A stretch of DNA of 64,000 nucleotides from Phaeocystidibacter luteus (GTDB lineage Bacteria; Bacteroidota; Bacteroidia; Flavobacteriales; Schleiferiaceae), in assembly GCF_008933115.1 (NCBI RefSeq), contig NZ_WBVO01000010.1:1-64000 (forward strand), in the 5' to 3' direction. The translations under genes and the position numbers were made by a program. Below, piece after piece: positions 33,336-50,248 of the stretch (positions within the stretch are counted from its first letter, which is position 1; each line of letters opens with the position of its first letter). The notes below the pieces were generated by a model that did no database searches, was not told where the DNA came from, and was given only the letters and a program-made list of their open reading frames with translations.

Positions 33336-33420
33336 GGAGAGGTGGCAGAGTGGTCGAATGCGGCGGTCTTGAAAACCGTTGAGGGTCACACCTCCGGGGG
33401 TTCGAATCCCTCCCTCTCCG
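33336..33420 (+). tRNA. tRNA-Ser (UGA anticodon)
   Basis: The acceptor stem GGAGAGG pairs with CCTCTCC. The anticodon stem GCGGT/ACCGT encloses the loop CTTGAAA, giving anticodon UGA. There is a class II long variable arm, and the T arm has GTTCGAAT. The discriminator base is G, as expected for serine. CCA is not encoded (CAA follows). The gene is 85 nt. The last 14 bases of the gene are repeated at 43161 and 50235 and partly at 44367, which makes this the anchor of the island to its right. Confidence 0.97.
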
Positions 33421-33430
33421 CAAAACTTGA

Positions 33431-33466
33431 AACCCTGACGAGCGCAGAGCGCTGTCAGGGTTTTTT
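33431..33466 (+). terminator. Terminator of tRNA-Ser
   Basis: AACCCTGAC pairs with GTCAGGGTT, an inner AGCGC/GCGCT stem stabilises it, and a TTTTTT tail follows. The same hairpin is copied at 43185-43220 at the start of module 2. Confidence 0.9.
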
Positions 33467-33929
33467 GATTTATCGAACCGCGTAAAGCTAGCTTTCAAGC
33501 GGAGCGATGAATCAAAAAACTAGGGCATGACGAAGGAATGCCCGTAGGTTTCAAGTTTTGCAGGTCCACTTCACTGGGATGCCGCAAGCTGACGAGAGGA
33601 AGCGCTGCGGAATCCCGACCGAAAGCTCAACCTCTCCTCCCTACTCCCTTGCAGAAGTTGAGACATGAAAAAAGACCGTAATGCGAAACGAAGTGAAGCA
33701 TCAGGCTTCAATTTTTTTGCAAGGACTCTCCCCCTGGGATCACAACCGCAGCGAAGCGAAGGTTGTAATCCCGACCGTTTACCAAACTTCCCCTAGAGCG
33801 GAGCGATGAATCAAAAAACTAGGGCATGACAAAGGAATGCCCGTAGGTTTCAAGTTTTGTAGGACTACCTCACTGGGATGCCGCGAGCCGAGGCACGAGG
33901 CGCTGCGGAATCCGACCACATCTCACAGG

Positions 33930-34076
33930 TGAGTCGAATCCATTAAATGAAACGCCTCGAGTATCGGCCTCGAACAACTGGTAAACTCCAGAATCCAACG
34001 GGTCTCTATCTTCCACAAAAGAGACTTCCGACCGACGCAGCTCCTCGAATATTGCATTCAAGTTGCTGTTCTCCAT
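33930..34076 (-). pseudogene. 5' fragment of the MENSNL gene, copy A
   Basis: The first 49 codons (MENSNLNAIFEELRRSEVSF ... SFNGFDS) are almost the same as those of the full-length gene at 54518-55087, then the sequence changes to repeat DNA and the frame runs 19 more residues to a stop at 33870. The similarity also covers roughly 100 bp upstream of the ATG, so the regulatory region was copied with it. The product would be a 68-residue remnant. A similar truncation is present at 43682-43828. Confidence 0.8.
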
Positions 34077-34160
34077 TAGATGTTTCTTCAGTAGTTTTTA
34101 TAGGTGTCTCGAATTTCGAACAGAAATGGTTTCGATGGAAACGGTTTAACGGGAGTTTAA

Positions 34161-34778
34161 CTACCACCTATCATGAAGGCGACCAAACAAGAATTCTTTC
34201 ATTTCATAATCTCCACCAAGACGAATGTTCCTTGGTACTTCGTGTAGTTCTATTGCCCTGCTCTTTCTAAGCTCCCAATAGGGACTCCACATGCCATAAT
34301 CCAAATACACTGTGGTGACCATTTCTCCTTCTTCCATTTCATGACTCACGCTATTCACATAATACATACTAGACCCTGTGTGACTTCGAAAATGAGGAAA
34401 GTCTACTTGCTCTGATCTCCTAGGGATTCTGTGCAATCCTTCGACTGTTACAAGCTTGAAGCCTTTGAACCCTGTAAGTGCAAACTGAACCTTTCCTTGC
34501 TTAACCTGAATAGGTACGTTAGCATAGTCCTCAGACATCAAAAGATTATGAATCTTATGAATTCGCTTATGAAAGGCGCTAGCAGATATGCCCATTTCAT
34601 TCGCAATACTCTTTAGCGTTGGCATACGTTCATCTCCATGAAAGACATGCAGGAAGTTGCGCAAGAAACTTAGAGTGGATGCCAAAGCTCTGTCTTGTTC
34701 ACAAACTTGAGTAGCCCTTGAGTGTTGATGGAGGATGTCGAAGAGGAGCTCCTTTGTGGGGGTGGTTTCGGGGTGCAT
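34161..34778 (-). CDS. HTH-containing protein of the restriction island
   Basis: A 205-residue protein. Residues ~53-76 (TLKSIANEMGISASAFHKRIHKI) look like a helix-turn-helix. The rest has a beta-rich C-terminal part (SMYYVNSVSHEMEEGEMVTTVYLDYG) with no motif that I recognise. It has no signal peptide. It starts 6 bp after the CoiA-like gene stop and is the last gene of the leftward operon, so it is probably co-expressed with the type III system. It might regulate the module, or act with the CoiA-like nuclease. This is not a standard component of type III restriction systems. Confidence 0.7.
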   Translation of the reverse strand: MHPETTPTKELLFDILHQHSRATQVCEQDRALASTLSFLRNFLHVFHGDERMPTLKSIANEMGISASAFHKRIHKIHNLLMSEDYANVPIQVKQGKVQFALTGFKGFKLVTVEGLHRIPRRSEQVDFPHFRSHTGSSMYYVNSVSHEMEEGEMVTTVYLDYGMWSPYWELRKSRAIELHEVPRNIRLGGDYEMKEFLFGRLHDRW

Positions 34779-34784
34779 GACGCG

Positions 34785-35837
34785 CTATTCAAAATACTTA
34801 AGGAAATCAGGATAGTTCCAGTTCATCTCCTCAAGCAACTGTTCGACATATTTTGCTTCCTTACGATATGCTGAGCAATCAGCAGCTTTATTGGAGTTAC
34901 ATGGTTCCTTTAAGAATTTACAAAAAATTGCTTCGTCATTGTAAAGTGAGGTGTTCTCTGCGTGATACCTGCACAAGAAGCAATTCTTCACTGGAAAATT
35001 CTTTTTTCCCAAAACGGCCACAGCAGACTTAAAGAAAAAAGGCTCAAATGTCCCGTAGTCTTCAAAGGTTGTTGAGAAGTAAATTTTATCTCCAAACCTC
35101 TTCCTCTTTTCTACAATCTCTCTTGGAGTGAGTTGAGAAAGGTGACATTTACCAGAGTTATATAGAACGAAAAAATTAAAGTACCTAAAACACGACCCCT
35201 TACATACATCCTTAACTGCCGGGGTGGTTCTAAAATTCAGAAAACGCACTTTTTCATTATTGACAGAAACTTTGCGTTTCTTAATTATGTCCAGATCATT
35301 CTCATTCTGTACGTCAAACTCGATTATCTTAAACTCGGAATTCTCTTTTTGCTCTGAAAGTTTATGAGTTACCGCAATCTCCACATAAACCTTCTCCTTT
35401 CTTGTTTCATTAAGTAGCAATAAATCAGGAATGAACTGACCATCCCTCTGCTCGTACTCAATTATCTTAAAATATCGAGTTAGATCAAATTTCTTTAACT
35501 TCTTATCATCCATGCAAGAGAATCCAATTGTCTCTTGAAAGTGGTTACACTCTACGTCTTGTTGAAGCTCAATAAAAAAAGGTATTCTAGTTTCTAGACA
35601 CGTGGTGTAGACATCAAAAAAGACTTGTTTACCCAGCTTATGCAGGTATGTTTCGGGTGAGCAGTTAACGTGTTTTTTATGAGCAAAATGGTGAGCTTTC
35701 TTTTTACCTAGCCTAGGTATAAGTGGATTTCTGCATGATAAACACACATATCCTTCCTCATCTAAGGCTTCTCGATTGAGATCATTGATATCTACAAGTT
35801 CCTCTCCGGCGTCAAGTGCATATTGATATTGAATCAT
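34785..35837 (-). CDS. CoiA-like nuclease
   Basis: A 350-residue protein. The N terminus has a zinc-ribbon-like CLSC ... KKKAHHFAHKK segment (Cys32, Cys35, His49/50/53) typical of CoiA-like proteins. A restriction-endonuclease-like core follows: FIPDLLLL (Asp138) and YVEIAVTHK (Glu153). The C-terminal part has a second cluster (CFLCRYH ... CKFLKEPCNSNKAADC, residues ~292-330) that could hold zinc or an Fe-S cluster. CoiA proteins in Firmicutes are competence-associated, but relatives occur in defence regions. It lies 71 bp after the type III restriction gene and 6 bp before the HTH gene. Role in this island: nuclease or DNA-processing accessory, by inference. Confidence 0.75.
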   Translation of the reverse strand: MIQYQYALDAGEELVDINDLNREALDEEGYVCLSCRNPLIPRLGKKKAHHFAHKKHVNCSPETYLHKLGKQVFFDVYTTCLETRIPFFIELQQDVECNHFQETIGFSCMDDKKLKKFDLTRYFKIIEYEQRDGQFIPDLLLLNETRKEKVYVEIAVTHKLSEQKENSEFKIIEFDVQNENDLDIIKKRKVSVNNEKVRFLNFRTTPAVKDVCKGSCFRYFNFFVLYNSGKCHLSQLTPREIVEKRKRFGDKIYFSTTFEDYGTFEPFFFKSAVAVLGKKNFPVKNCFLCRYHAENTSLYNDEAIFCKFLKEPCNSNKAADCSAYRKEAKYVEQLLEEMNWNYPDFLKYFE

Positions 35838-35908
35838 AGGTCAATTCGTGAATAACAATACATACTCAAGAAGAGTGCCATATCAATATATCCAACCTAG
35901 CCACAAGA

Positions 35909-38900
35909 TCAATTTAGATTAGAAAACACATCCTGTAAATAGGATTTGTTGCTTTCGATGAACAATATGTTATTGTCACTAAAATCGTCCCTTGTCTTAT
36001 TTCCATCGCTCCATACTCGTCTTAACTTATCGTAAGGCGTGACTGAGAGAATGAAAGCCGAGATTGAAACCTCAGCGTCATTCTTGTCATTCTTCAGATC
36101 AGTTTGAATTTTAGCTTCCAAAGTGGAGGCATCATTCTTACACCACAATACTTTTGGATTATTGAAGTGTGTTTCTCCGAGCATTATTCCCTTCGGATCG
36201 AGAAAGTAGATGTATTGCTTCTTGCCATCCACAACCCAAACTATGAAGTCAGGAAAAAAAGATGAGCTATCCATGAAGAAGCCAATTCCTTTAACCGAAA
36301 GGTTTCGAAGTACAAACAGTTGCTTATTCTTGAATTTATCTGATTCCTTAGCGAACTGGCGCAAATGGTCTATGAAGTCTCTTTCACCATCATTCAACCT
36401 CACAGGAACAGTTTTAATCTCTTTGAACTTCTTGCCATCAGCAATTGAAGCTATGGGCGAATAAAGATGCTTTTCGTAGTGAATAGAAGGAAGCGTAGCA
36501 TCATCCTTCTCATATATCACTTTAATTTTAGCTTCTAATTCTTTAATGAACGAATCGTGTTTTTTGGGCACCTTCACAATCATTGTATGTGAAGCTGGGA
36601 ACATTGCTTCATGCTCTTTGTGTGAGAGCATATCATAAGTAAGGTGTTCAGAAAGGAATGCTTTTTCTTTATCAGCATAGAACTTATTGATGTAGTCCTT
36701 TACCAAGCTCACAGCGACACCTTGTATTTTGCCTGAAATAGCTTCGTTGATGCCAAATTGCCCTTTATGGCTTAGAAGATTGAAGCCACCACTTTCTATT
36801 AGCTCGGATAGCACTGGTTGATTTATAATTAAGTTGTGATACCCTTTAAGTAGTTTGAATCTGTTGGCTTCCAATGAAAGGGCATTGTAGTCGAGAAAGT
36901 CTCGAAACTCTTTGAGGAAATTCTCCTGATAATCTACAACATCTTCTGCCACCTGGCTATTGAAACCACCTGCTGCAATGCTGATTTTATTGCGCGTGTC
37001 AATAGTCACCCTTTTCGCCACATCTGCGCTATATTTCAATACAATCAGTTCATCCTTAAAGGATTTTCCTTCTTGTTTTTTGAAGGTCATTATATGCCCA
37101 TCCCAAAGCTCTTCATGGTTGAGTTTGATTTCTATTGGGATATTGGTGTAATCAGGTACTTCTTTCTCTATTTCCGTTAAGAAACGATTCATGTAAGAAG
37201 CGTTCAAACCCATTATTGAAATGGTCTGTAATGCTCGGACATGGTAAGGAGCGTTAGCTTCTTCTCGTTTTAGGGATAGGTTTTTACCCTTTAGACGAAC
37301 ACCACGACCAAACAACTGAATGATTTGAGCACCTTCGCTTTTACCCATGTTCATAAGGCCCATACTTGAAACTCTCCATGAGTTCCAACCTTCGATAAAC
37401 TTCTTAGATCCAATTAGGATATTGATGGTAGAGTTGGTCTCTGAAATGGCTTGAAATAATGAGTTGGAAAAATTATCATCCTGAATGGTCAATTCTCCTT
37501 CGGTATCTGCTTCAAGTGTTTTTGCATACTTAGGTACATCTCCGATATTAATTACTGCGAAATATTGATCACTCGTTTTTGTCTTTAGCGCAATTTCACC
37601 TTCTGCCTGTTTGACCTGAAATGCTTCTATGTTACCAATGCCATTGAAAACTTTGCTCAGAATTGTTTCTGCAATCGGTTTTGATGTTTTAAGGTGTTCA
37701 AATTGTCCTATGAAAATATCATTCCCATCTGCATCCCTTAACCCCGTGCTGTCATTTAGGATTTTATCAATATCTACTTGCAAAGAGGCTGGTGAAGAAA
37801 GTGCATACTTAAAGAACTTTATAATCCTAGAAACATCAGAAACACTTTCCTTATCTCCTTTGGTTAAGCTGCTTGAATTGGAGCTAATAACACGGCTTCC
37901 AACAAATACCCAAAGGGGCTTCTCAATGTTGTATTGGCGAAGCTCTTTTTCATATTTCTCAAACAGTTCAAGCTGCTCGTAGTAACCTAACAAACTGGCT
38001 GTAAGAAGTAGCTTATTTTGTTCTTCACTGTATTCGTTTTTGGTGTCAAGGTTGAATACACTAAAGTCTTTGCCATAACCATCTGTATAGAAATGGCGAT
38101 AGGAGTAGTCAAAAATGATGGACTTACCGTATTCCTGCAATAAGTCTTTAGTGCTGTTGGTGATGATCTGACCAAAGGTTGCTGAATACTCGAAAGTGAA
38201 AGAACCTTCGCCACGAGTCAAATGCTCTCTCAGATTCTTCCATGCTCTTTCTTCCGACTTTTGTCCCTTGTGTCCTTCATCTATGAATACTAAGTTCTTT
38301 GACTCTGAGAAGTAATCTACATCAACACTTACGCCTTCTCCTTCTTTGTCTTTAACCAACTTGGTAATCTCTAAAATGAGTATCTCACCTTCCTTGGTTT
38401 TTAGGCTTTCCTCACTTCCTGAGTATAGTTTGACGGGAATACCACTCTCCGCACAACTTTCATAATGTTGCCTGCTTAATCCTTCATTTGGGGTTATGAG
38501 GATGATGTTTTCCCAATCTTTGAAGTACTTGGTGATTTGCCAATAGTTGCAATGCATCAAAAGGGTTTTACCACTTCCGGTCGCCATCCAGTAAGCAAGC
38601 TTCTTCAAGTCTTTTTCTGTGTACGCTTCTATTTGCTTAAAGTCTTTGCTTGCTTCAGCATATTCATTAAGATTGACAATTAGCAGATTTGAATTATTGC
38701 TGTATTGATCAAAAAAGCACTCAGTAAATAGCAAGGCAAACCATTGATAGTATTTGAATGTGAGAAACGGTTCAGCTCGGTTTTCACGGAGTTGTTTCTC
38801 ATAGCCCTGGATGGCTTCATCGTATTGCTGTATCGCTCGATCTTCAATGAGTTTGTCTGAGTTAGACATTAAAGCACTGGCAAAATAGGTGTAACCCGTT

Positions 38901-39013
38901 GAGCTGGTGCCTGACTCTTTGTTGTTAAACTCATCTCGCAAGTCTTCAAAGGCTTCATAACCCAACTGATGCAAGATGTACCTGAAAAGGACAAGTTGTT
39001 TTTCTAGTTGCAT
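35909..39013 (-). CDS. res: Type III restriction enzyme, Res subunit
   Basis: A 1034-residue Res subunit of normal size. The superfamily 2 helicase core has Walker A ATGSGKT (144-150), a DEGH box (245-248), and motif VI QLFGRGVRLKG (about 560). The C-terminal endonuclease has the FPDFIVW ... YIYFLDPKG pair (about 918-940), a PD-D-x-K arrangement. Together with the Mod subunit encoded 2 bp upstream, it cleaves DNA with unmethylated inversely oriented sites after ATP-dependent translocation. Intact reading frame and motifs suggest an active enzyme. It is third in the leftward operon. Confidence 0.95.
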   Translation of the reverse strand: MQLEKQLVLFRYILHQLGYEAFEDLRDEFNNKESGTSSTGYTYFASALMSNSDKLIEDRAIQQYDEAIQGYEKQLRENRAEPFLTFKYYQWFALLFTECFFDQYSNNSNLLIVNLNEYAEASKDFKQIEAYTEKDLKKLAYWMATGSGKTLLMHCNYWQITKYFKDWENIILITPNEGLSRQHYESCAESGIPVKLYSGSEESLKTKEGEILILEITKLVKDKEGEGVSVDVDYFSESKNLVFIDEGHKGQKSEERAWKNLREHLTRGEGSFTFEYSATFGQIITNSTKDLLQEYGKSIIFDYSYRHFYTDGYGKDFSVFNLDTKNEYSEEQNKLLLTASLLGYYEQLELFEKYEKELRQYNIEKPLWVFVGSRVISSNSSSLTKGDKESVSDVSRIIKFFKYALSSPASLQVDIDKILNDSTGLRDADGNDIFIGQFEHLKTSKPIAETILSKVFNGIGNIEAFQVKQAEGEIALKTKTSDQYFAVINIGDVPKYAKTLEADTEGELTIQDDNFSNSLFQAISETNSTINILIGSKKFIEGWNSWRVSSMGLMNMGKSEGAQIIQLFGRGVRLKGKNLSLKREEANAPYHVRALQTISIMGLNASYMNRFLTEIEKEVPDYTNIPIEIKLNHEELWDGHIMTFKKQEGKSFKDELIVLKYSADVAKRVTIDTRNKISIAAGGFNSQVAEDVVDYQENFLKEFRDFLDYNALSLEANRFKLLKGYHNLIINQPVLSELIESGGFNLLSHKGQFGINEAISGKIQGVAVSLVKDYINKFYADKEKAFLSEHLTYDMLSHKEHEAMFPASHTMIVKVPKKHDSFIKELEAKIKVIYEKDDATLPSIHYEKHLYSPIASIADGKKFKEIKTVPVRLNDGERDFIDHLRQFAKESDKFKNKQLFVLRNLSVKGIGFFMDSSSFFPDFIVWVVDGKKQYIYFLDPKGIMLGETHFNNPKVLWCKNDASTLEAKIQTDLKNDKNDAEVSISAFILSVTPYDKLRRVWSDGNKTRDDFSDNNILFIESNKSYLQDVFSNLN

Positions 39014-39015
39014 GG

Positions 39016-42000
39016 TTATGAGAGCATTTTGTTTTTGAATACTTCTTCAATGGGTTGATAGCCTTCTATATGTGCCTGGTCGTTGATGTAAAGTAGATCA
39101 TACTCGAAGCCTTTAAGTTCCGATTTTAATGCTGCTGCATCTGCTTTGAAATCATCTACACTCCAATCTTTTACTGAGCGCCATACCACCAAAATACTTT
39201 TGTTGGCATTGTTGTGACCATAAATGAATTGGTACTTTTTGCCATTGACTTCTTTGGTGATGCATTTCTGCATGTGCAGCCCTATTAGGTAGTTGAAGGT
39301 TTCTACCAAATCAACAGCTTGCTCGGTATCATAAGTGAAGCCATCCCATACCTTGAGTTTGTAATCCCAAGGGTTTTGCATGGCGGCAGTATTCACTAAG
39401 GATTGGCTGCCTTTGGTTTCAAACTCCAAGAAGTACTTAGGGATGTACTGCTCAAATTCCAAAGCCTTTTGTACTGCATCTTCTGAGGCATTGAAGGCAA
39501 TGTTTTCTAAGGCTTCTTCATACTGCTCTAGGCGTTGGTACTTGAAGAATACCCCAAGCCCATTCATGCTGCCATCTTTTGGTTTGCCATCCTTCCAATC
39601 GAAGGTGTAGGCGATTTTTTTGATGCGTGGGAGAATAGTTCTGTGAACATTTTGAGCCATATCTTGAATAATAAAAGACATACTTCTTTCAGCCACATCA
39701 TTCAACTGGAAAGTGCTTTGTGCAGTGGTTCCTGAACCCGCAAAAAAGTCTAATATATAACCTGTTTTTTTGGAAGAAAGAGCTAACAAGTTTCTTACAA
39801 CTGTGGTTGGTTTAGGATTAGGGAAAGTTCCACGAACACCAACAATATTAGCCAACTCTTTCTCACCATCTGTGAAGTCAGAGATCACGGATTTAGAAAC
39901 ATCAGTCGTAACAGTATTAAGATGCTTTTTTAGTCGTGGCACTGTGTTTTCATCTTCCCCAAAATGAATCATATGTTGATCATTCATTTTTTTAAAAGAC
40001 ATGGCTTTCCTTTCACTTTCGTATGACCACAACCAACCGCGACTAGGATGAGGACACGGTTTTCCTGTGACAGGATGTTGTGGTTTATAGAATCTAAATT
40101 CTGGTGAATTGTCGTCTTTATGATCTTTTGTGAGTGTACTGGAATTTGGCCATGAAGCATCCGCAGACGCGTAAACATGAATATTTGCTTTCTTCTTTTT
40201 AGCATCTTTTTGAGTCACCCACTTGCCACTTGCATCTCTATATTCAGCATACTTATAGCTTCGAATCCCTTTCCAAGGATTGTTTCTTTTGGTTTCCTTA
40301 TTCCATTCGAGTCCTAAAGCTTCAACCTCGGCTTTGTAATTTTTCTCCTGTTCTCTGTAAAGAATTCTTAGTTCTTCACTGATTTTGTCCAAAGTTGGAT
40401 AATCCTTGTTTAGCTTCTGAATCAGCTCTTTTACTTCAACATAGCCTGGTTTTGCCCTTCTGAAAGTCTCATGTTCTTGGATAGCTGCATTCTTATCTTT
40501 GGTGTATGCTTGGATGTATTCATGATTATGCGAAAAGGTCTTCGCATCATTGTGGGTCGTGTTCTTTACCCAAATCACATTTTCAATGTAATTCTCGGGG
40601 CCAAACTCTGCTTCCAATAAGGTGGAGAGTCTATGAGTCACTTTATTTTTTGGGTCTTTGTCGTCAATGCTGGTAAAGAATAATCCATCTTGAGCCATTA
40701 AATCTCTGGCAATGGGCATTCTGTCTGCTATCATTGTGAGCCAACTGCTGTTTCTGAATTTGTCTTTGTATAGGAAGTCATTACCACCACTGTTGTAAGG
40801 TGGGTCAATGTAAATGGTGTTAATTTTTTGAGAGAACTTGTCTCTGATCAAATTCAAACCTTGATAATTGTCCGACTCTACTACCAAACCATTTGACGCA
40901 GCTTCAATATCTCGACCATCGGAAACCACAGAGAGCAAGTTATATTTGAAGTCAGTAGAGAAGTGTTTAGTATCAATGGGTAACCTTCTTCGTTCACCTT
41001 CTTTCCCTATGTCAGTAACTCCAAACAACTCTTTCCACTCATTAACCTGCTTCTCATTGTTAATTGCTTCTTCTAAAATAGGTTTGGCTGTTTCTTCGCC
41101 AACATATTCCACCAATCGGTCGATGGTAATCACCCATTCGGTGCTTAGCACAAACTTCTTTTTCTCCCACAGCTTTTTTTGGAAGTCTTCAATCTGGCTA
41201 ACAAAATCAATGATGGCATCGGCAATAGATTTGAATACCTTAATGGTTTTAAGGTTATGCTTTAGTCGGTCAAAATGTGAATCTATATCGGTTACATAAA
41301 GGTCGTCTACATTCACCAATTCACTCTTGATGTAATAATCTAGCTCACGCTCTAAGAAGCCTTTCAGATTCTTATGAATAAAGAAATCGTGCTTATTCTT
41401 TCGGGTGTAGTGCTGGAGCTTCTTTAAGAGTAGGGGTTTGCCTTCTTGTTCTTTCCATAGGTTGGCAAATATTGGATTGGTGCCAAATTCTTTTTTCAAG
41501 AAATCAAATGCAATTTCATCTAAGGTGTCTTGCTTGCTATTGCCTTTAACTTTCTTCTTTTCATCATCACCTAATGGTCTGTACTCAAAATAGATAGTAA
41601 TTTCTTTCTCGTTAACATCAGGCTGCTTGTTGGCTAACACAAATTGCAGGTCGCTGTCATCTTTTTCTTTGATTTCAGGCGACTTATCAGAAAGCATAAA
41701 GAAGTTGGTTTCTTCGGCTTTTACATTGCCTTGCTCCAATTGTGCATTGTGCAATTTGAAATTCACTACAAGGTTACTATCAGCGGTTTGAACCTTAAAC
41801 GCATAGTGGTTGAATGTCTCAGATGACTTGATGTAGTATTGATCTTGATTAGCCCAATGAAAGTGGGTTTCTTCTCCGTTGTATGGCACTACATACTTTT
41901 CATTCTTACCAAACCTACGTTTGCTGATAAAGTCGCCCTTATCATAGTAGCGTGAGAAGAACAAGGTCAGGTGGTTGTATATCTGATTCTCAGTTTCAAC

Positions 42001-42357
42001 TGACACGGAAGATTCAGTGGCTTTGGCCTGTAGCTCTTGATAGTGGTTGATTTTATCCTTGCCGAACTTCTCAAGAGTTTTCTTTTCACTCTCGTCTGCT
42101 TCTAACCATCCCTTTATGATATCATCCTTTTCAAACTCGACGATTAGCTCTTGCACTTGCCTAGCTTCATCGGCTGACAAAGTCTGCAATTCTGCTTTTA
42201 CCTTGTCTACCAATAGCTGGTCAATGAAGTTGGCAATCTCCTTCTTCTTGTAATGGAGAATCTTATAAACACCAAAATCCAAGTCCTGTGAATCGAACTG
42301 AAATAGTTGATTGAGGAAGGATTTTAGTTGGTCTAACGGTGTACTGTTAATGGCCAT
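39016..42357 (-). CDS. mod: Type III DNA methyltransferase, Mod subunit
   Basis: A 1113-residue, large Mod protein. The catalytic motif DPPYNSGGND lies near residue 517 and the AdoMet motif DFFAGSGTTAQ near 869, the beta-class order seen in type III methyltransferases. DPPY indicates N6-adenine methylation. A long N-terminal region (~1-470, unusually large for Mod) and a C-terminal region probably include the target recognition domain. The recognition sequence cannot be predicted. No repeat tract of the phase-variable type is visible in the gene. It is encoded 7 bp after the XRE gene and 2 bp before res. Confidence 0.95.
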   Translation of the reverse strand: MAINSTPLDQLKSFLNQLFQFDSQDLDFGVYKILHYKKKEIANFIDQLLVDKVKAELQTLSADEARQVQELIVEFEKDDIIKGWLEADESEKKTLEKFGKDKINHYQELQAKATESSVSVETENQIYNHLTLFFSRYYDKGDFISKRRFGKNEKYVVPYNGEETHFHWANQDQYYIKSSETFNHYAFKVQTADSNLVVNFKLHNAQLEQGNVKAEETNFFMLSDKSPEIKEKDDSDLQFVLANKQPDVNEKEITIYFEYRPLGDDEKKKVKGNSKQDTLDEIAFDFLKKEFGTNPIFANLWKEQEGKPLLLKKLQHYTRKNKHDFFIHKNLKGFLERELDYYIKSELVNVDDLYVTDIDSHFDRLKHNLKTIKVFKSIADAIIDFVSQIEDFQKKLWEKKKFVLSTEWVITIDRLVEYVGEETAKPILEEAINNEKQVNEWKELFGVTDIGKEGERRRLPIDTKHFSTDFKYNLLSVVSDGRDIEAASNGLVVESDNYQGLNLIRDKFSQKINTIYIDPPYNSGGNDFLYKDKFRNSSWLTMIADRMPIARDLMAQDGLFFTSIDDKDPKNKVTHRLSTLLEAEFGPENYIENVIWVKNTTHNDAKTFSHNHEYIQAYTKDKNAAIQEHETFRRAKPGYVEVKELIQKLNKDYPTLDKISEELRILYREQEKNYKAEVEALGLEWNKETKRNNPWKGIRSYKYAEYRDASGKWVTQKDAKKKKANIHVYASADASWPNSSTLTKDHKDDNSPEFRFYKPQHPVTGKPCPHPSRGWLWSYESERKAMSFKKMNDQHMIHFGEDENTVPRLKKHLNTVTTDVSKSVISDFTDGEKELANIVGVRGTFPNPKPTTVVRNLLALSSKKTGYILDFFAGSGTTAQSTFQLNDVAERSMSFIIQDMAQNVHRTILPRIKKIAYTFDWKDGKPKDGSMNGLGVFFKYQRLEQYEEALENIAFNASEDAVQKALEFEQYIPKYFLEFETKGSQSLVNTAAMQNPWDYKLKVWDGFTYDTEQAVDLVETFNYLIGLHMQKCITKEVNGKKYQFIYGHNNANKSILVVWRSVKDWSVDDFKADAAALKSELKGFEYDLLYINDQAHIEGYQPIEEVFKNKMLS

Positions 42358-42364
42358 GTAACCT

Positions 42365-42679
42365 TTATTTCTTTGAGTTCTTCAGTTCTTTACTTGCTAT
42401 GCTGAGCGCATTTTCAGCTTCAACTTGATCTTTGACAAGTTCTAACACCTGGTCCGCAAGCCAAAGCGTAATCAATTCTTTCTCATCGACATTGAAAATC
42501 TTGGCAAGAGCTGCGACGTGCTCATGTCTTGCTCTTCTTTCACCACGTTCTATTTTACTAAGAAGTGGTGTATCTAACTCCAATCGAGCCGCAACTTGTC
42601 GTTGAAGAAGTTTGGCGTCTTCACGCAATTCTTTAATTCTATTACCAAAGATCACACTAGCGTTTTTTAGACTTGTCAA
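42365..42679 (-). CDS. XRE-family regulator of the restriction operon
   Basis: A 104-residue cytoplasmic DNA-binding protein. The HTH_3 domain (~10-68) reads FGNRIKELREDAKLLQRQVAARLELDTPLLSKIERGERRARHEHV. A short helical tail follows. It is the first gene of the leftward operon and, like C proteins of other restriction systems, probably controls mod/res timing. The start is uncertain: TTG at 42679 gives the full frame, while GTG at 42655 gives MIFGNRIKELRE, a more typical beginning. No ATG is available. No operator palindrome was confirmed. Confidence 0.88.
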   Translation of the reverse strand: MTSLKNASVIFGNRIKELREDAKLLQRQVAARLELDTPLLSKIERGERRARHEHVAALAKIFNVDEKELITLWLADQVLELVKDQVEAENALSIASKELKNSKK

Positions 42680-43041
42680 TATTTGTCGAACTTAACCAAT
42701 TTACACAAGTCCTCACCAATTCCGTTTCCACATTTATTCACTATTGAAAGGATGTGAAGATGCACTCTTCAGAATACATCTTCAAACCTTTCCGGATGAT
42801 CACACTAGAACCACTATTCATCAATTCTGTCAATCACCTCTTTCACAATGAGAAAGATGTACTTCCATTTCCTATTTTTCATATCAACAGTGTTATAATC
42901 TCGTGGGAAAACTCCCTTATTTATTGCAGCATACATCAGCTACAACTATAAATAGTCTGAAAATTTCAAAAAGTCAGAAATGAGAGAAATTTCTCCAACA
43001 AAATATTTCTTCTATACAACCTTAGTTTCTAAATTTCGTCG
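42680..43041. other. AT-rich upstream region of the restriction operon
   Basis: No gene is seen. It should contain the promoter for the leftward operon; no convincing TTG/TAnnTTTG pair was found by eye on the minus strand. Short open frames here lack any protein-like pattern. Confidence 0.5.
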
Positions 43042-43174
43042 ACCATTTGAGAACTTCTGAGCGAGAAGCCCTCTGCACTGAGAAGTTTCCAAATCGTAAC
43101 CCTTCTGAGAAGCAAGGCTCTGAAACACTGATTTTCAGGACGATATATGAGAGGTTCATTTCCCTCCCTCTCCG
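43042..43174 (+). repeat. Module right-end repeat (E1), copy a
   Basis: Closely similar to 50107-50248. It begins near GAGAACTT, contains AGCGAGAAGCCCTCTGCACTG, AACCCTTCTGAGAAGCAAGG and a CTGAAA...TTTTCAG stem, then GGACGATATA and GAGAGGTTCA. It ends directly in TCCCTCCCTCTCCG, the copy of the tRNA-Ser 3' end (43161-43174). Related sequence is present in reverse orientation at 51436 and 54213. Confidence 0.88.
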
Positions 43175-43860
43175 CAAAACTTGAAACCCTGACGAGCGCA
43201 GAGCGCTGTCAGGGTTTTTTGATTCATCGAACCGCGTAAAGCTTGTTTTCAAGCGGAGCGATGAATCAAAAAACTAGGGCATGACGAAGGAATGCCCGTA
43301 GGTTTCAAGTTTTGCAGGTCCACCTCACTGGGATGCCGCAAGCTGACGAGAGGAAGCGCTGCAGAATCCCGACCGAAAGCTCAACCTCTCCTCCCTACTC
43401 CCTTGCAGAAGTTGAGACATGAAAAAAGACCGAATTGCGAAACGAAGTGAAGCATCAGGCTTCAATTGTTTTGTAGGACTCTCCCCCTGGGATCACAACC
43501 GCAGCGAAGCGAAGGTTGTAATCCCGACCGTTTACCAAACTTCCCCTAGAGCGGAGCGATGAATCAAAAAACTAGGGCATGACGAAGGAATGCCCGTAGG
43601 TTTCAAGTTTTGTAGGACTACCTCACTGGGTGCCGCAAGCCGAGGCATGAGGCACAGCGGAATCCGACCACATCTCTCAGGTGAGTCGAATCCATTAAAT
43701 GAAACGCCTCGAGTATCGGCCTCGAATAGCTGGTAAACTCCAGAATCCAACGAGTCTCTATCTTCCACAAAAGAGACTTCCGACCGACGCAGCTCCTCGA
43801 ATATTGCATTCAAGTTGCTGTTCTCCATTAGATGTTTCTTGAGTAGTTTTTAAGGTGTAC
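43175..43860. repeat. Module left-end repeat, copy 2
   Basis: A near copy of 33421-34106, including the tRNA-type terminator (43185-43220), the hairpins, the internal duplicated unit and the truncated MENSNL gene. It follows the second tRNA-Ser 3' end without a gap. This marks the start of a second module. Differences from copy 1 are scattered single bases and one deletion near 43629. Confidence 0.9.
43682..43828 (-). pseudogene. 5' fragment of the MENSNL gene, copy B
   Basis: The first 49 codons match copy A and the intact gene at 54518-55087 apart from a few substitutions (here DSLDSG). After FDS the frame enters the left-end repeat and runs to a stop at 43532. The loss of the C-terminal 140 residues at the same codon as copy A shows that the truncated form, not the full gene, was duplicated with the left-end repeat. 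Confidence 0.8.
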
Positions 43861-43918
43861 GAATATCGCGGCTGAATCTTTACACTTGAAATCAATTAAC
43901 CAACCTTTAACAACTATT

Positions 43919-44284
43919 ATGAAAGATCCCGAACTAGCATATGAGAAACTGATGTGTGAGCTATTCCGCTGCTGCAAAAGTGAAGACGCCCTTAGACAAG
44001 CAGACGCAAGAGAGTTTTCTGGATTCAACGACTCGAACGAATTGGAGCAATTCAGCTCAGTTCAACTCGGACTGCTCGCAGCCCTCCAGAAAATGAGAGT
44101 TGATTATACTCTGGGTACAAACTACAACGTCAATAATGATTGGTTGTTAGAAGACGAGCAGATCGACTTCTGGCAGAATAAGGTTGTTATTGCTAATGAC
44201 AGGCTAAATATCATGAGCCTATTGAACCATATCATCAATCTGCATAATGATCTTAAGGCTAAAGAGAAGTCATATGATTACTGA
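43919..44284 (+). CDS. Hypothetical island protein
   Basis: A 121-residue soluble protein from ATG 43919; a TTG at 43886 would add 11 residues and is not preferred. It is acidic and helical (ELAYEKLMCELFRCC ... LNIMSLLNHIINLHNDLK). No motif or family is recognised. It is the only gene of the short stretch between the left-end repeat copy 2 and a further tRNA-Ser-end-like sequence at 44367, so it is the sole cargo of a possible 1.2-kb module. Its leftward-facing neighbour copy B is divergent from it. Confidence 0.55.
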   Translation: MKDPELAYEKLMCELFRCCKSEDALRQADAREFSGFNDSNELEQFSSVQLGLLAALQKMRVDYTLGTNYNVNNDWLLEDEQIDFWQNKVVIANDRLNIMSLLNHIINLHNDLKAKEKSYDY

Positions 44285-44366
44285 GAAGAAGTTGTCAAAA
44301 TGCGAGTTTCCATTTCTTCACCGTACAGATTCAATCATAATATATTTCAGTGAATCGCTTTAGTCC

Positions 44367-44379
44367 TTCCCTCTCCGCA
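44367..44379 (+). other. Third, shorter copy of the tRNA-Ser 3' end (att-like)
   Basis: TTCCCTCTCCGCA at 44367-44379 matches the tRNA-Ser terminus plus two downstream bases (CCCTCTCCGCA identical over 11). It is shorter than the copies at 43161 and 50235 and lacks the E1 repeat before it. It may be another junction between modules; chance cannot be ruled out for 11-13 bases. Confidence 0.45.
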
Positions 44380-44492
44380 TCACGCTTCAAGGCGCAAGGC
44401 TTGTAAAAGAATAAACCAGTCATGCTAGCGTAAGAGAGGACGTCATCTAATACCCTGGTGTACTATCTCACAGTGGGTAAGTCTTCAGAGCT

Positions 44493-45170
44493 CTATTGAG
44501 CTGATAAGAAAGCTTGAGGAAGTTTGTGGATTCTTCGGTCTTGCATGTTTTCATCCACGACCCTAAGCAGTGAATCAATATCAGTGTTTTTCAGATGATC
44601 GTACCATTCTTCGAACCTACCATATCCCTTCTCGAATCGAATCATGTCCCAGTTCAGAGCATCTTTTCTCAATCCTTTCAAGATTTTTTCGCTCTTATTA
44701 GGTGAGTTCAGTAGTGCATTATAATATTTGGCTTGCCATAGTTTCGGCTGCTGAAGTGTAGCCTTGACAAGTTTTGTTTTCAATTGAGAATCAAAAATCC
44801 TTTCAAGTGTCCCCAGACTGTCTTCGAATCTGGAGCCCCTACGAACTACATTTCTAACTTGACTAGCCGCATCATTAATAAGTCTCCCATCATCATCCAA
44901 GGATATTTTGTATTGTAATCCTCTCTTGCTTAAAATTTCGAAATGTACAACCGGCCATTCTAGACAAGCTTTGATATCACTGCCTCTTGTATTTCCATAA
45001 AATCCATATAAATCAAAATATGGACTATAGTTATCTGACCTAGGTTGACGAACCAATTCAAGCCCAAAAACAAATGGTTTGAATACCATATAGTATTTAC
45101 CCTGCGAAAATTTGGACAACTCCGGTAAAGCTTCAGTCCAAGTTCGGAAAAAATCACTTTTCTGGGTCAT
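44493..45170 (-). CDS. Hypothetical island protein
   Basis: A 225-residue soluble protein with no signal peptide. The N-terminal half is mixed alpha/beta with aromatic residues (FRTWTEALPELSKFSQGKYYMVFKPF), the C-terminal half helical and charged (LERIFDSQLKTKLVKATLQQPKLW, FEEWYDHLKNTDIDSLLRVV). No family is recognised. It stands alone, leftward, in the third module of the tRNA-Ser island. Accessory cargo of unknown role, intact in length as far as can be judged. Confidence 0.6.
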   Translation of the reverse strand: MTQKSDFFRTWTEALPELSKFSQGKYYMVFKPFVFGLELVRQPRSDNYSPYFDLYGFYGNTRGSDIKACLEWPVVHFEILSKRGLQYKISLDDDGRLINDAASQVRNVVRRGSRFEDSLGTLERIFDSQLKTKLVKATLQQPKLWQAKYYNALLNSPNKSEKILKGLRKDALNWDMIRFEKGYGRFEEWYDHLKNTDIDSLLRVVDENMQDRRIHKLPQAFLSAQ

Positions 45171-45477
45171 ATATAAAATTGATTTTGCAATTAATTTCCA
45201 ATTGGAATAAACTCTTCACGATTGCCAACAGCTTGCGGGAAACTTCTGGACAGCACAGCTAAGTTTGACGAATTACCGTGACAGACCAGCCAGCGATTAA
45301 GCTACTCATACTAGGTGCATTAAGCTAGCTTTAGTCTGTGTGTCGGTAAGAAAGAGCTCTGACACCATCAAGGGGCCCCAACCCAAGCCCTTGTGGTGAA
45401 GTTCGGAAGAATAGAATTAAATCGGTGCGGAGCACACCCGATCCTAAACTATTAACTTGGAGTCAGTTTGAGTAATT
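45171..45477. other. Intergenic island sequence, no gene seen
   Basis: The 307-bp gap contains GGGGCCCCAACCCAAGCCC and other short GC-rich words but no open frame of protein-like character and no repeat shared with the rest of the window that I could find. Confidence 0.5.
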
Positions 45478-45924
45478 CTAATATGCTGGCATCACATAAA
45501 AGCTGTCCTCAATTGTCGCTGAACGTTGTAGCAATCGACTTCTAACCGAAATGGATAAATAATGCATTCCTGGACGATCAAATGTATGTTCTAAACTCCA
45601 ATTGCCATTCTCATTTTTTCTGACAATCATATCCAAAGCCTCCTTGGGATAAGCTTTTTTATCGATGACGATGAATTCAGGATATAAGTCATTCTGATAT
45701 TCAAGAACACATGAAAAAGTTGATGGTTGACCAACAATCAGTTGATTGGAAGCCGGAATCAAATGAACGTTGTAATTAGAAAGTTTCACCACATTACTAA
45801 GTGAATCAACCTGAGACTCAAGTAGACTGATTCTCTTGATGTAATGAGAATGATTTTCATCATTCTGCGTACATCCTACTATCGCCAATAAAAGTAACAT
45901 TGTAGTTATTCTTTTCATTTTCAT
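45478..45924 (-). CDS. Lipoprotein with short coiled coil, hypothetical
   Basis: About 148 residues from ATG 45924; the longer open frame to 46065 overlaps the upstream pseudogene and ignores the lipoprotein signal (MKMKRITTMLLLLAIVGC). After the lipid-modified Cys comes a short coiled coil (ISLLESQVDSLSNVVKL), then a beta-sandwich-like region (VHLIPASNQLIVGQPSTFSC ... EHTFDRPGMHYLSISVRS). The second part faintly recalls GldM-type domains, but this is not secure. The gene begins 1 bp after the stop of the broken gene to its right, so both belonged to one operon. Confidence 0.7.
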   Translation of the reverse strand: MKMKRITTMLLLLAIVGCTQNDENHSHYIKRISLLESQVDSLSNVVKLSNYNVHLIPASNQLIVGQPSTFSCVLEYQNDLYPEFIVIDKKAYPKEALDMIVRKNENGNWSLEHTFDRPGMHYLSISVRSRLLQRSATIEDSFYVMPAY

Positions 45925-45925
45925 T

Positions 45926-46168
45926 CTATTTAAGTTGCCAAGTAGTCGAATCGCTCCAAATACCACTATCATTACTAACTCCAGATTTTGAGAACCAACG
46001 TACTCGACGAATTGTATCCCTGTTGAGAACATTCTCATACCAATCTCCTTTGACCTTCCAAACACTATCTGAAGGTGATTGAAAGTCAGACATCCTATTA
46101 ACCTGATTCAATAAAAAGTCGTCTAAGTTATTGGAACCATGAATTACAGCGCCAGGATACTCTTCAAC
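45926..46168 (-). pseudogene. 3' remnant of a gene cut by an IS end
   Basis: An open frame reads EEYPGAVIHGSNNLDDFLLN ... WSDSTTWQLK and stops 1 bp before the lipoprotein gene at 45924. Its 5' side runs straight into the 58-bp palindromic IS remnant at 46169-46226, and continues in frame only through foreign sequence. The missing start and tight spacing to the next gene indicate a real gene that lost its 5' part. No family is recognised. Confidence 0.6.
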
Positions 46169-46226
46169 ATGTAACCCGTCAGCACAATTCGGACACAACT
46201 TAGTAAATTGTGCTGACGGGTTACAT
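46169..46226. mobile_element. Palindromic IS remnant (two IS ends fused)
   Basis: Bases 46169-46189 are the perfect reverse complement of 46206-46226 (21-bp arms, 16-bp centre). The left arm and centre match the first ~40 bp of the IS-end sequences at 48258 and 51961 (TGTAACCCGTCAGC ... GGACACAACTTAGTAAATT). So a left end and a right end appear joined with almost the whole element deleted. It separates a broken gene (left) from a lipoprotein gene with a GTG start (right). Confidence 0.8.
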
Positions 46227-46268
46227 GCCCATGCAAGAGTGAATTGACATTCAAACACACCAATTGCC

Positions 46269-46874
46269 GTGAAACGAATTCTTCTACTCCTCTTCACCCT
46301 AGGTCTACTAGCATCGTGTAATAGCGACCATGTCACCACGGCAACAGGACGCGTGTACATCATCAACACGAATATTCCAATTCCAGGCGCTAAGGTTAAA
46401 ATAGCCAAACGAATTAGCTCAACATTCAATGTTAGGTATATCGATTTGGACTCTACAACAACTGATTCACAAGGAAGGTTCGACTTGACGGTTACTCAGG
46501 ATGTATCCAAAAGCCACATTGTATATGCCGAAAAAGAAGGATACTTCAGTATGCTTTTAGGAAGTCCGAATAGCAATTTAAATGACGATGAGGCAAACTC
46601 AATCAATCTATATCCAGTGCCACAGGCGTGGGTGAAGATTAATTACGATCAATTGGATCCGAATCATGGGATTCATATCAATCGTCCATCGGGCACTAAT
46701 AGGATAAATGGATTCACATTGATTAACGACACATCGGTAGTCAGTCGAATCTATGGAAGTATGAATGAAGAATTGAGTACTTTCTTCTATAAGAACACTA
46801 CCCAAATCAAACATGAACGCATCCCTGTTCAGACAGGAATTCATGACACCGTAGAGGTGAATATCGCTTTCTAA
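46269..46874 (+). CDS. Lipoprotein with carboxypeptidase-regulatory-like domain
   Basis: A 201-residue lipoprotein (signal MKRILLLLFTLGLLASC). Residues ~25-100 form a transthyretin-like carboxypeptidase regulatory domain (ATGRVYIINTNIPIPGAKVKI ... TTTDSQGRFDLTV). The C-terminal half has no recognised domain. The start codon is GTG at 46269, only 43 bp from the IS remnant, so the original promoter may have been displaced. A related but diverged lipoprotein follows at 46898, 23 bp after the stop, probably in the same operon. Outer-membrane or periplasmic location is expected; function unknown. Confidence 0.75.
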   Translation: MKRILLLLFTLGLLASCNSDHVTTATGRVYIINTNIPIPGAKVKIAKRISSTFNVRYIDLDSTTTDSQGRFDLTVTQDVSKSHIVYAEKEGYFSMLLGSPNSNLNDDEANSINLYPVPQAWVKINYDQLDPNHGIHINRPSGTNRINGFTLINDTSVVSRIYGSMNEELSTFFYKNTTQIKHERIPVQTGIHDTVEVNIAF

Positions 46875-46897
46875 TTTTTAATCAAGCTCAAATAGGC

Positions 46898-47551
46898 ATG
46901 AACTATTCAAAAATACTATTGATGCTAGCACTATACTTATCGTTAGCTGCGTGTAACAAAGCAGCTGAGCCTACCACAATCGTAGGACAAGTTCGGACCT
47001 ACGGAACGGAAGAAGGGATACAAAGAGCTCCGGTAAGAGTGCGGATTGTAGAGGAAAAGAGCAACAGCTGTTTTGGTTGTGGAACTTCCTATCCGGTAAA
47101 AAGTGAAGTATGGACAGATCAAGATGGCTATTTTTCAATTAGTGCTGACCTCTACGAAGACTTGACGTATTACCTGGCCGTTAACGACGATGAACTGCTC
47201 AATGACAGAAAATATATAGCGCCTACTCACGGCAGTATTGACCACCCTAGTAGAAGGATCAACTCTGTCGGCGGCACCATCCATAAAAATTACTACCTCA
47301 CAGCTTATGGTTGGGTGAGATTTACATTCCTCAATCAAAGTGGAAGCCAAAGGTTTTCTTACAGCGTCGGCGGTGGAGGATATGAAGAATTCTTCAATCC
47401 TAACAATTCAATCCAACGCGTTTGGGACTTTGGAGGAAACTTGGAGCACGACATTGCCGTTGGAAGGACTCTAAATGGAGTAGATTCGGTATGGAGAGAG
47501 AGTTTCTTCGTAAATGCATTTGACACCATTGACTACCAACTCGAATATTAA
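46898..47551 (+). CDS. Lipoprotein with carboxypeptidase-regulatory-like domain
   Basis: A 217-residue lipoprotein (signal MNYSKILLMLALYLSLAAC). It has the same plan as its upstream neighbour: TIVGQVRTYGTEEGIQRAPVRV, WTDQDGYFSISADL, and then AYGWVRFTFLNQSG, which parallels PQAWVKINYDQLD of the gene at 46269. A CFGC pair (around residue 58) is peculiar to this copy. The two genes look like an old tandem duplication. No T9SS tail. Function unknown. Confidence 0.75.
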   Translation: MNYSKILLMLALYLSLAACNKAAEPTTIVGQVRTYGTEEGIQRAPVRVRIVEEKSNSCFGCGTSYPVKSEVWTDQDGYFSISADLYEDLTYYLAVNDDELLNDRKYIAPTHGSIDHPSRRINSVGGTIHKNYYLTAYGWVRFTFLNQSGSQRFSYSVGGGGYEEFFNPNNSIQRVWDFGGNLEHDIAVGRTLNGVDSVWRESFFVNAFDTIDYQLEY

Positions 47552-47634
47552 CCGCAACTAAGCAAACAGCCACGGAATTATCACGCGGCTGTTCTGATAG
47601 TTCCTAATTCACATTTTTCTTAAACCAATAACCT

Positions 47635-48291
47635 ATGAACCTTAAAAGTACAATTTTGTGGCTGGCCCTCCTAATGGGAGTAGTATCAGCTAAAGGGCAA
47701 CCCCAGCTAGATAGCCTGGCCGCCATGTTCGATCAGTTACCCTCACACCTTTACCCCAGTCAAATTCTCCATGACCGAAGTCCAGCGTATATCTATTGTT
47801 GGAACGTAGATTCGACAAGGGCATGGACACTGGACTCGAACAACCTTGCTTCACCTTATCTTTATGACGGGAGCATTCCAGCTCCACTTTTGAAACGAAG
47901 TCATTGGGCGAGGATGTGTGCCGACATGAAGGTTAGTTCAACTAACCCAGCCTTAGTGCCGGATGCAGCCACACTGTTTACTCGGGATAGCATTGCACGA
48001 CTCAATTACGACATTCCCATAGGCGGAATGCATCTAAACTACCATCGGATGAATCCTTTTGCCTTGGATAGCGGGTATCTGTACTACGACACGACGCTAA
48101 ACAAGTATACCTTAATGCCTGATACGTTGTGGTTTGATAGAGCGAACAACTTGTTCCACTATACAGAAAACCCTGACAGTCTTGGAGCTTTAGCATTTGA
48201 GGAATATGAGGTGTTTGCTGGAGTACTCACCGAAACGAGTATTTACGCGCATGCATCTGTAACCCGTCAGCACAATTCGGACACAACTTAG
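47635..48291 (+). pseudogene. N-terminal part of a large secreted protein, truncated by an IS end
   Basis: A 218-residue frame with a signal peptide (MNLKSTILWLALLMGVVSAKGQ). The text LPSHLYPSQILHDRSPAYIY and RLNYDIPIGGMHLNYHRMNPFALDSG resembles the start of very large Bacteroidetes secreted proteins that carry a PGAP1-like hydrolase domain further on. The last 11 residues (SVTRQHNSDTT) are encoded by the IS end that begins at 48258, so the gene is cut there. A matching C-terminal hydrolase fragment lies at 53221-54212 on the other strand. The link is inferred from family memory, not from alignment. Confidence 0.65.
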
Positions 48292-50106: not shown

Positions 50107-50248
50107 ACCAACTGAGAACTTATAAGCGAGAAGCCCTCTGCACTGAGAAGTTTCTCCCGCAACCGCGGGATAACCCTTCTGAGAAGCAAGGCCCTGAAAT
50201 ATTGATTTTCAGGACGATATAAGAGAGGTTCATTTCCCTCCCTCTCCG
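50107..50248 (+). repeat. Module right-end repeat (E1), copy b, with tRNA-Ser 3' end
   Basis: This matches 43042-43174, with an additional TTTCTCCCGCAACCGCGGGA insertion. It ends with the exact 14-bp tRNA-Ser terminus TCCCTCCCTCTCCG at 50235-50248. It is the rightmost tRNA-end copy in the window and should mark the right boundary of the third module. The rest of the gap 49902-50361 has no gene. Confidence 0.85.

What the first reader, a model, noticed from the sequence alone, without database searches (positions are those of the whole stretch)
34161..42679. Type III restriction operon extended by a CoiA-like nuclease and an HTH protein
The order XRE-mod-res-CoiA-like-HTH has gaps of 7, 2, 71 and 6 bp on one strand. 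The first three are a standard system; the last two are not. The CoiA-like protein has PD...E-x-A nuclease residues plus two cysteine/histidine clusters, and could process DNA cut by Res or act on incoming single-stranded DNA.
Basis: partly seen in the sequence, partly recalled or inferred. Interest (0 to 1): 0.6.

Follow-up and report, generated by a model that had tools for sequence, protein, structure and literature searches.

The report
Stacked defence genes at a tRNA-Ser
A bacterium carries a normal type III restriction system with two extra genes, a CoiA-like nuclease and a DNA-binding protein; both extras turn up elsewhere beside many different defence systems, so they look like travelling companions on a mobile island rather than parts of a new five-gene machine.

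Summary
In detail: XRE, mod, res, CoiA-like and HTH genes lie on one strand with gaps of 7, 2, 71 and 6 bp; Mod and Res carry the expected motifs. A conserved five-gene system is not supported. The nearest mod-res relative found (Res 87%) has neither extra gene, nor have three other Res relatives in the stretches fetched; of 395 class genomes only this one has all three families. The CoiA-like family has a CoiA_N zinc finger, an unmodelled PD-(D/E)XK-like core (E-x-A in 20 of 23, E-x-K in 3 of 23) and a C-terminal Cys4. In 14 of 34 neighbourhoods a restriction or defence gene was shown among the nearest two genes, of many kinds (types I, II, IV, BREX, DISARM-like and others). In Acinetobacter, 94%-identical copies front different systems. 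The HTH family lies near such genes in 6 of 9 loci. The block sits in a 9.75-kb unit at a tRNA-Ser(TGA) hotspot that carries CBASS and a type II system in a sister species. Best reading: an island-borne stack of separate defence genes. The nuclease's action is inferred.

The parts
42365..42679 (-). XRE/Cro-type HTH protein, 104 aa, TTG start; probable controller of the restriction operon
   Evidence: Pfam HTH_31 E 9e-12; PADLOC Control_protein E 6e-9
39016..42357 (-). Mod, type III DNA methyltransferase, 1113 aa
   Evidence: N6_N4_Mtase E 4e-30; MTase_III E 6e-148; DPPY at 518, FAGSG at 872
35909..39013 (-). Res, type III restriction subunit, 1034 aa
   Evidence: ResIII E 9e-14; REase_III E 4e-122; GSGKT 146, DEGH 245, PD...DPK at 921
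34785..35837 (-). CoiA_N + PD-(D/E)XK-like nuclease, 350 aa, with N-terminal Cys/His and C-terminal Cys4 clusters
   Evidence: CoiA_N E 5e-12; conserved residues; AF2 model pLDDT 91; VIA best row 3ijm_B Z 8.3, 96 residues, rmsd 3.0
34161..34778 (-). HTH protein, 205 aa, of a family found near restriction/defence genes in other Bacteroidia-class genomes
   Evidence: HTH_10 E 2e-4; relatives and neighbours
33336..33421 (+). tRNA-Ser (TGA), anchor of the island array; its 3' end is the left junction
   Evidence: ARAGORN
33422..34118 (+). left end of the unit ('S', ~700 bp, internal repeats plus a 5' fragment of the 54518-55087 gene)
43040..43175 (+). right end of the unit: ~130-bp arm ending in a copy of the tRNA 3' end
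43176..43868 (+). second copy of S (96%), left end of the next unit in the array
50107..50248 (+). right arm of the next unit (86% to the first)

Best explanation
A complete type III restriction-modification operon (XRE-mod-res) that shares one mobile island with two separate defence-linked genes. The island is a 9.75-kb unit inserted at the 3' end of tRNA-Ser(TGA), probably by a tyrosine integrase acting from elsewhere in the genome (inferred). Mod methylates and Res, driven by its helicase, cuts unmodified DNA (inferred from the families). The CoiA-like protein is most likely a stand-alone, zinc-stabilised PD-(D/E)XK DNase that attacks foreign DNA, plausibly ends or single strands left by restriction or entry, and gives added protection whichever restriction system it sits beside (inferred). 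The HTH protein is most likely a regulator of island or restriction genes (inferred, weak). That the two are companions rather than obligate type III subunits rests on their distribution.
For: Closest mod-res (Res 87%) lacks both extras, as do three other Res relatives in the fetched flanks: 0 of 4. CoiA-family members (the L040 copy is interrupted by a stop) lie beside type I (L068), C5 methyltransferase plus EcoO109I-like (L040), ISP/Eco57I-type (L079), type IV (L019), BREX (L016), DrmD and DUF4268 (L070), Old (L076), AAA-TIR (L062), HNH (L063), helicase plus DUF1156 methyltransferase (L014). In Acinetobacter, DNA similarity between L066 and L071 covers the CoiA gene (93%) and stops at its end, with different systems downstream. 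Neighbour proteins: 342 PADLOC families at E<=1e-10 for 127 neighbours of 34 CoiA loci, against 23 for 124 neighbours of 32 random positions in 16 genomes of the class. HTH family: 6 of 9 loci near type I, IIG, Old or SpbK-like genes. Site: behind the same tRNA-Ser in sister species G001 lie a tyrosine integrase, CBASS and a type II system, then the same ~130-bp arm. Island G+C 0.389 against 0.469 upstream.
Against: Tight spacing (71 and 6 bp), one strand, and no terminator-like site called in the 71-bp gap allow one transcript and joint action; two promoter-like sites overlap or flank that gap (35939-35911, 35912-35885), but such sites were at chance level over the region (23 found, 21.5 expected). 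Three Acinetobacter loci also have the family near type III-like genes. Half of the 34 neighbourhoods were not shown to hold a defence gene or HNH protein: three had chosen neighbours scanned without a PADLOC match (L018, L073, L077), 14 were only in the pooled scan. Neighbours scanned one by one were chosen by eye. PADLOC family counts are redundant, and the control comes from one class while the cases span several phyla. No activity data; E-x-A lacks the usual catalytic lysine.
Confidence: 0.6

Rival explanations
1. A dedicated five-gene type III system: the CoiA-like nuclease degrades DNA cut by Res, and the HTH protein controls the operon.
For: Gaps 71 and 6 bp on one strand; no terminator-like site in the res-CoiA gap; family a few genes from type III-like genes in L066, L067, L071.
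Against: 0 of 4 Res relatives have either gene in the fetched flanks; of 395 genomes only G000 has all three families; near-identical CoiA genes front different systems.
Confidence: 0.15
2. The CoiA-like protein serves the transfer or upkeep of mobile DNA rather than defence (for example processing of incoming single strands).
For: 801 plasmid records hold a match, 672 of them predicted conjugative; an IncHI copy lies directly before a UvrD helicase among transfer genes.
Against: Only 6 of the 801 are covered over 80% or more of the protein and most are enterobacterial, so they may be few lineages (inference; 7 of 801 records were opened); chromosomal members lie beside restriction and defence genes; no phage record matched.
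Confidence: 0.12
3. A competence factor like pneumococcal CoiA, helping transformation.
For: CoiA_N domain in 22 of 23.
Against: CoiA_nuc (PF06054) matches 0 of 23 members at E<=0.01 and not this gene at E<=1; active site is E-x-A/K, not E-x-Q.
Confidence: 0.06
4. Passenger genes without present function, caught by chance in a mobile island.
For: Unique grouping; HTH gene has higher G+C (0.435) than CoiA (0.368), which fits separate arrival.
Against: Both reading frames open; active-site and zinc residues conserved across distant relatives.
Confidence: 0.07

Closest known systems
Type III restriction-modification (EcoP15I-like Mod-Res)
   Same: Mod and Res domains, motifs, order and spacing
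   Different: Followed by two unrelated genes; best PADLOC models are PDLC03646 and PDLC03654
CoiA (Streptococcus pneumoniae competence factor, PF06054)
   Same: CoiA_N zinc-finger domain and a following PD-(D/E)XK-type core
   Different: No match to CoiA_nuc; E-x-A/K instead of the PD-EXQ given in PMC1189080 (passages read); extra C-terminal Cys4
CoiA-domain defence protein of Vassallo et al. 2022 (PMC9519451)
   Same: A CoiA domain among phage-defence systems found by functional selection (passages and section 7 read)
   Different: Which system it is, and whether it is homologous over full length, was not established; the only PADLOC match of ours at E<=1 was a weak one to DruB (E 0.004, 37 residues)
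Recurrently acquired nuclease-protease pairs (PMC12799240; abstract and opening of the introduction read)
   Same: A nuclease gene repeatedly joined to unrelated defence systems
   Different: Different nuclease fold (metallo-beta-lactamase) with a partner protease; no protease in this block
tRNA-integrated genomic islands / defence hotspots
   Same: Repeat of the tRNA 3' end, variable defence cargo, stacked units, integrase family in the genome
   Different: This unit carries no integrase and shares a ~700-bp left end with its neighbour
Restriction systems inserted with long target duplication (Nobusato 2000, Furuta 2010; seen only as references)
   Same: Restriction genes between long direct repeats
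   Different: Here the repeats start at a tRNA end and a conserved right arm recurs, so site-specific insertion seems likelier

Membership tests
Type III restriction-modification | Mod with N6/N4 methyltransferase domain, DPPY then FxGxG | tested here: met
Type III restriction-modification | Res with Walker A, DExH and C-terminal PD-(D/E)XK | tested here: met
Type III restriction-modification | mod and res adjacent on one strand | tested here: met
   2-bp gap
Type III restriction-modification | One-strand methylation, ATP-dependent cutting between two sites | not testable with these tools
   needs enzyme or methylome
Conserved type III + CoiA + HTH unit | Order recurs in unrelated genomes | tested here: not met
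   0 of 4 Res relatives have CoiA or HTH in the fetched flanks; in the 37 CoiA loci no relative of this Res or HTH at E<=0.01 and only partial Mod matches in L066, L067, L071. Nearest to a CoiA-HTH pairing: L048, an HTH relative 11 kb from a weak 58-residue CoiA_N-region match
Canonical CoiA | CoiA_N domain | tested here: met
   this protein and 22 of 23 members
Canonical CoiA | CoiA_nuc domain PF06054 | tested here: not met
   0 of 23 at E<=0.01; in the own genome no match at this gene at E<=1, while the model rings in 5 of 14 control genomes
Canonical CoiA | PD-EXQ active site | tested here: not met
   A in 20, K in 3 of 23
PD-(D/E)XK nuclease superfamily | Conserved D...E-x-K-type residues | tested here: met
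   D138 and E153 in 23 of 23; E-x-K in 3, E-x-A in 20
PD-(D/E)XK nuclease superfamily | Restriction-endonuclease-like fold | tested here: inconclusive
   VIA's top two rows are named restriction-endonuclease-like (3ijm_B Z 8.3, 96 aligned, rmsd 3.0; 9y1l_A Z 7.2, 92 aligned, rmsd 3.1) but Z is borderline; Foldseek has no hit at E<=0.001
tRNA-integrated genomic island | Repeat of tRNA 3' end at the far junction | tested here: met
   33404-33421 and 43158-43175, 15 of 18 identical
tRNA-integrated genomic island | Integrase inside the unit | tested here: not met
   no match of the G001 integrase there; its relatives in this genome are on contigs 10 (69%), 1 and 25

The most novel reading that the evidence does not exclude
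The CoiA_N/PD-(D/E)XK family is a general plug-in effector: one nuclease recruited again and again by mechanistically unrelated restriction and exclusion systems (types I to IV, BREX, DISARM-like), perhaps to destroy the ends or single strands that they create, as a shared downstream degrader.
Probability: 0.25. Interest if true: 0.7.

Novelty: new member of a known kind. Interest (0 to 1): 0.42.

Why it matters
It separates what is ordinary (a type III system in a tRNA-anchored defence hotspot) from what may be useful: a widely spread, uncharacterised nuclease family that recurs beside many kinds of restriction system. If it adds protection to unrelated systems, restriction in nature may often work with a shared clean-up nuclease. 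It also points to a natural test case, Acinetobacter loci where near-identical copies of the gene front different systems.

Tried and rejected
Single-protein scans for relatives of the CoiA-like protein confirmed none in genome contigs or viral contigs; the alignment A2 found 37 loci. No phage record matched. PDB sequence searches gave nothing useful. The HTH protein folded alone gave a useless model (pLDDT 33), so no fold claim is made for it. Promoter and terminator scans were at chance level (23 found, 21.5 expected; 7 found, 6.8 expected). VIA rows for residues 217-263 (p56, Z 6.2, 46 residues) were not interpreted. Foldseek's lack of a significant hit says nothing against the fold. Long target duplication by homologous insertion was considered for the ~700-bp repeats; it is not excluded. 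Literature searches whose listings showed no paper on this family beside restriction systems: (open-access library only); Furuta 2010 is not held.

Results that do not fit neatly: G340 and G442 have both a CoiA-family and an HTH match; in G340 on different contigs, in G442 about 11 kb apart with a weak, partial CoiA match. L077's 1304-aa neighbour has no PADLOC match but a borderline Mrr_cat match (E 2e-4); L018's has an Endonuclease_1 domain, which I did not count.

Rows dropped before counting: the neighbour test used 34 CoiA neighbourhoods. Left out: L017, L041 and L043 as the same records as L081, L070 and L086; L067 as near-identical to L066 over 8.4 kb (96%); weak or partial hits L003, L044-L048, L056, L057, L089-L098 and the other weak matches; and the window. 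Of 801 plasmid records with a match, 7 were opened. Alignment A3 used 22 of the 37 loci (left out L064, L067, L069, L073, L086, L089-L098). For HTH, 9 fetched loci were used (L048-L055, L115) and neighbours of 7 scanned (not L049, L050); L010 and the three Hymenobacter plasmids were not examined. For the control, 32 of the 40 positions printed were fetched.
Full report
OBSERVATION. Mod and Res match type III models and carry their motifs: DPPY (518) then FAGSG (872) in Mod; GSGKT (146), DEGH (245) and PD...DPK (921) in Res. The XRE protein resembles restriction controller proteins. The 350-aa protein has a CoiA_N domain (E 5e-12) and the 205-aa protein only a weak HTH match.

IS IT A CONSERVED UNIT? 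In 395 genomes of the class, 5 hold a Res relative at E<=1e-60, 18 a CoiA-family match at E<=1e-3, many of them covering only the N-terminal part, and 10 an HTH relative at E<=1e-3, the window's own genome counted each time. Only that genome is in all three lists; G340 and G442 are in two (CoiA and HTH). The closest mod-res, G475 (Res 87% identical; DNA 83%), has no CoiA or HTH in the 2.6 kb of contig after res; L059, L060 and L061 have none in the fetched flanks. So 0 of 4. Of 99 near relatives, 2 (own included) have a CoiA-family match, the other one weak and short (single-sequence query), and 2 (own included) an HTH match. In the 37 CoiA loci no relative of this HTH or Res was found at E<=0.01, and only partial Mod matches, in three Acinetobacter loci. 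The plasmid and class loci had no Mod or Res match either; one of them, L048, has an HTH relative 11 kb from a weak 58-residue CoiA match.

THE CoiA-LIKE FAMILY. Alignment A3 (23 rows) shows D138, E153, H158 and K164 in all 23, C32, C35, C59, C286, C289, C306 and C321 in 22, and residue 155 as A in 20 and K in 3. The three E-x-K members tie the motif to the ordinary PD-(D/E)XK pattern. CoiA_N matches 22 of 23 and CoiA_nuc (PF06054) none, so this is not canonical CoiA, which PMC1189080 describes as PD-EXQ (passages). The AlphaFold2 model is confident (pLDDT 91.2, pTM 0.74). Foldseek gave no hit at E<=0.001; many of its top rows are restriction enzymes or other nucleases that I recall as PD-(D/E)XK folds. 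VIA's best row is 3ijm_B, titled a restriction endonuclease-like fold (Z 8.3, 96 residues, rmsd 3.0), and 1wdj, a template used in PMC1189080 for CoiA, scores Z 6.1. These Z values are borderline.

ITS NEIGHBOURS. Among the two nearest genes on either side, 14 of 34 neighbourhoods were shown to hold a restriction or defence gene by profile, by record annotation or, for L065, by likeness to another locus: L014 and L065 (SNF2/PLD helicase; L065's copy is 87% identical to L014's; L014 also a DUF1156 methyltransferase), L016 (BREX, record annotation), L019 (type IV), L040 (C5 methyltransferase and EcoO109I-like), L062 (AAA-TIR), L063 (HNH), L066 (HKD-Snf2 and DUF4391, followed two genes on by MTase_III and REase_III), L068 (type I M and S), L070 (DUF4268 and DrmD; on its copy L041), L071 (DrmD and AbiU, then MTase_III), L076 (Old), L079 (ISP/Eco57I-type), L081 (UvrD of GajB type, a weak indicator). 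Three more (L015, L069, L072) have an HNH protein (profile for L015; the others by clustering). L018, L073 and L077 had no PADLOC match for the neighbours tested. The other 14 were only in the pooled scan. Proteins scanned singly were chosen by eye. As a control, 124 neighbours of 32 random positions (two in each of 16 genomes of the class) matched 23 PADLOC families at E<=1e-10, none named a methyltransferase or restriction enzyme, against 342 for the 127 case neighbours. Families are redundant and the taxa not matched, so this is a contrast, not a test.

NATURAL SWAPS. In Acinetobacter L066 and L071 the DNA further upstream (about 81%, with a 2-kb insert before CoiA in L066) and the CoiA gene are alike (CoiA 93% DNA, 94% protein), and similarity stops at the end of the CoiA gene; downstream lie different systems. 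L068 has a 70% CoiA followed by a type I system. The gene thus stays while its restriction partner changes.

THE HTH FAMILY. Ten aligned members have most of their conserved columns in the C-terminal half. Of nine other loci fetched, six have restriction or defence genes within about 5 kb: L115 (type I R), L052 (type I M and S), L054 (type I M and R), L053 (type IIG), L055 (Old), L048 (SpbK-like). L051 matched only mads models, which I did not count, and L049 and L050 were not scanned. Orientation varies, so it is not fixed in one operon.

THE SITE. The block lies in a unit that starts at the 3' end of tRNA-Ser(TGA) and ends at 43175 in a copy of that end (15 of 18 bases), preceded by a ~130-bp arm. 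The same arm ends the next unit (50107-50248) and occurs again at 69.5, 70.8 and 72.9 kb of the contig and on contig 10; in G001 behind tRNA-Ser(TGA) and about 11 kb behind tRNA-Ser(GCT); and once in G002. Units 1 and 2 also share a ~700-bp left end (96%). The operon part is A+T-rich (G+C 0.389 against 0.469 upstream). In G001 the same tRNA is followed by a tyrosine integrase (Phage_integrase E 2e-18, Arm-DNA-bind_5), genes that look prophage-like by eye, a CBASS with E1-E2 and JAB genes, and a type II restriction system before the arm. Our genome has a 69% relative of that integrase beside tRNA-Ser(GCT) on contig 10. The unit itself has none.

READING. Shown: intact type III genes; two extra genes whose families occur apart from each other and from this system and lie beside varied restriction and defence genes; a tRNA-anchored, stacked island. 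Inferred: that CoiA-like is an active DNase against foreign DNA, that HTH is a regulator, and that an integrase in trans moves the unit. A CoiA-domain protein has been recovered in a functional phage-defence screen (PMC9519451), which makes a defence role plausible; whether it is of this family is unknown. A nuclease shared by unrelated systems has a published parallel with a different fold (PMC12799240, abstract and opening).

The host is probably Flavobacteriales: this is my inference from 300- and 600-kb genomes in the same order and recalled biology, not a tool result; it also underlies my calling the class Bacteroidia.

Noticed in passing
window 33336-50248 and G000 contig 2 to 73043: Tandem array of units behind tRNA-Ser(TGA), each ending in the same ~130-bp arm with repeated GAGAAG-type motifs (by eye); the first two also share a ~700-bp left end, and no relative of the G001 integrase lies in the array.
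   Followed up: partly
L161 (G000 contig 10) 1-14000: Related element at tRNA-Ser(GCT): integrase 69% identical to that of G001, arm at the far end, cargo with an Mrr_cat restriction endonuclease and a HerA-type (DUF87) ATPase.
   Followed up: partly
L112 (G001) 3253-10856: CBASS (2TM effector, cyclase, E1-E2, JAB) next to a type II restriction system in the same hotspot.
   Followed up: yes
window 54518-55087, 33876-34100, 43628-43852: 5' fragments of the 189-aa gene at 54518 are repeated inside both ~700-bp repeats; a 260-aa copy is in G001. No NCBIfam or PADLOC match for the window gene.
   Followed up: no
L048-L055, L115: HTH family that recurs near type I, IIG and other defence genes, in varied orientation.
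   Followed up: partly
L020 9980-13002: An IncHI-type plasmid carries a CoiA-family gene directly before a UvrD helicase among transfer genes.
   Followed up: no
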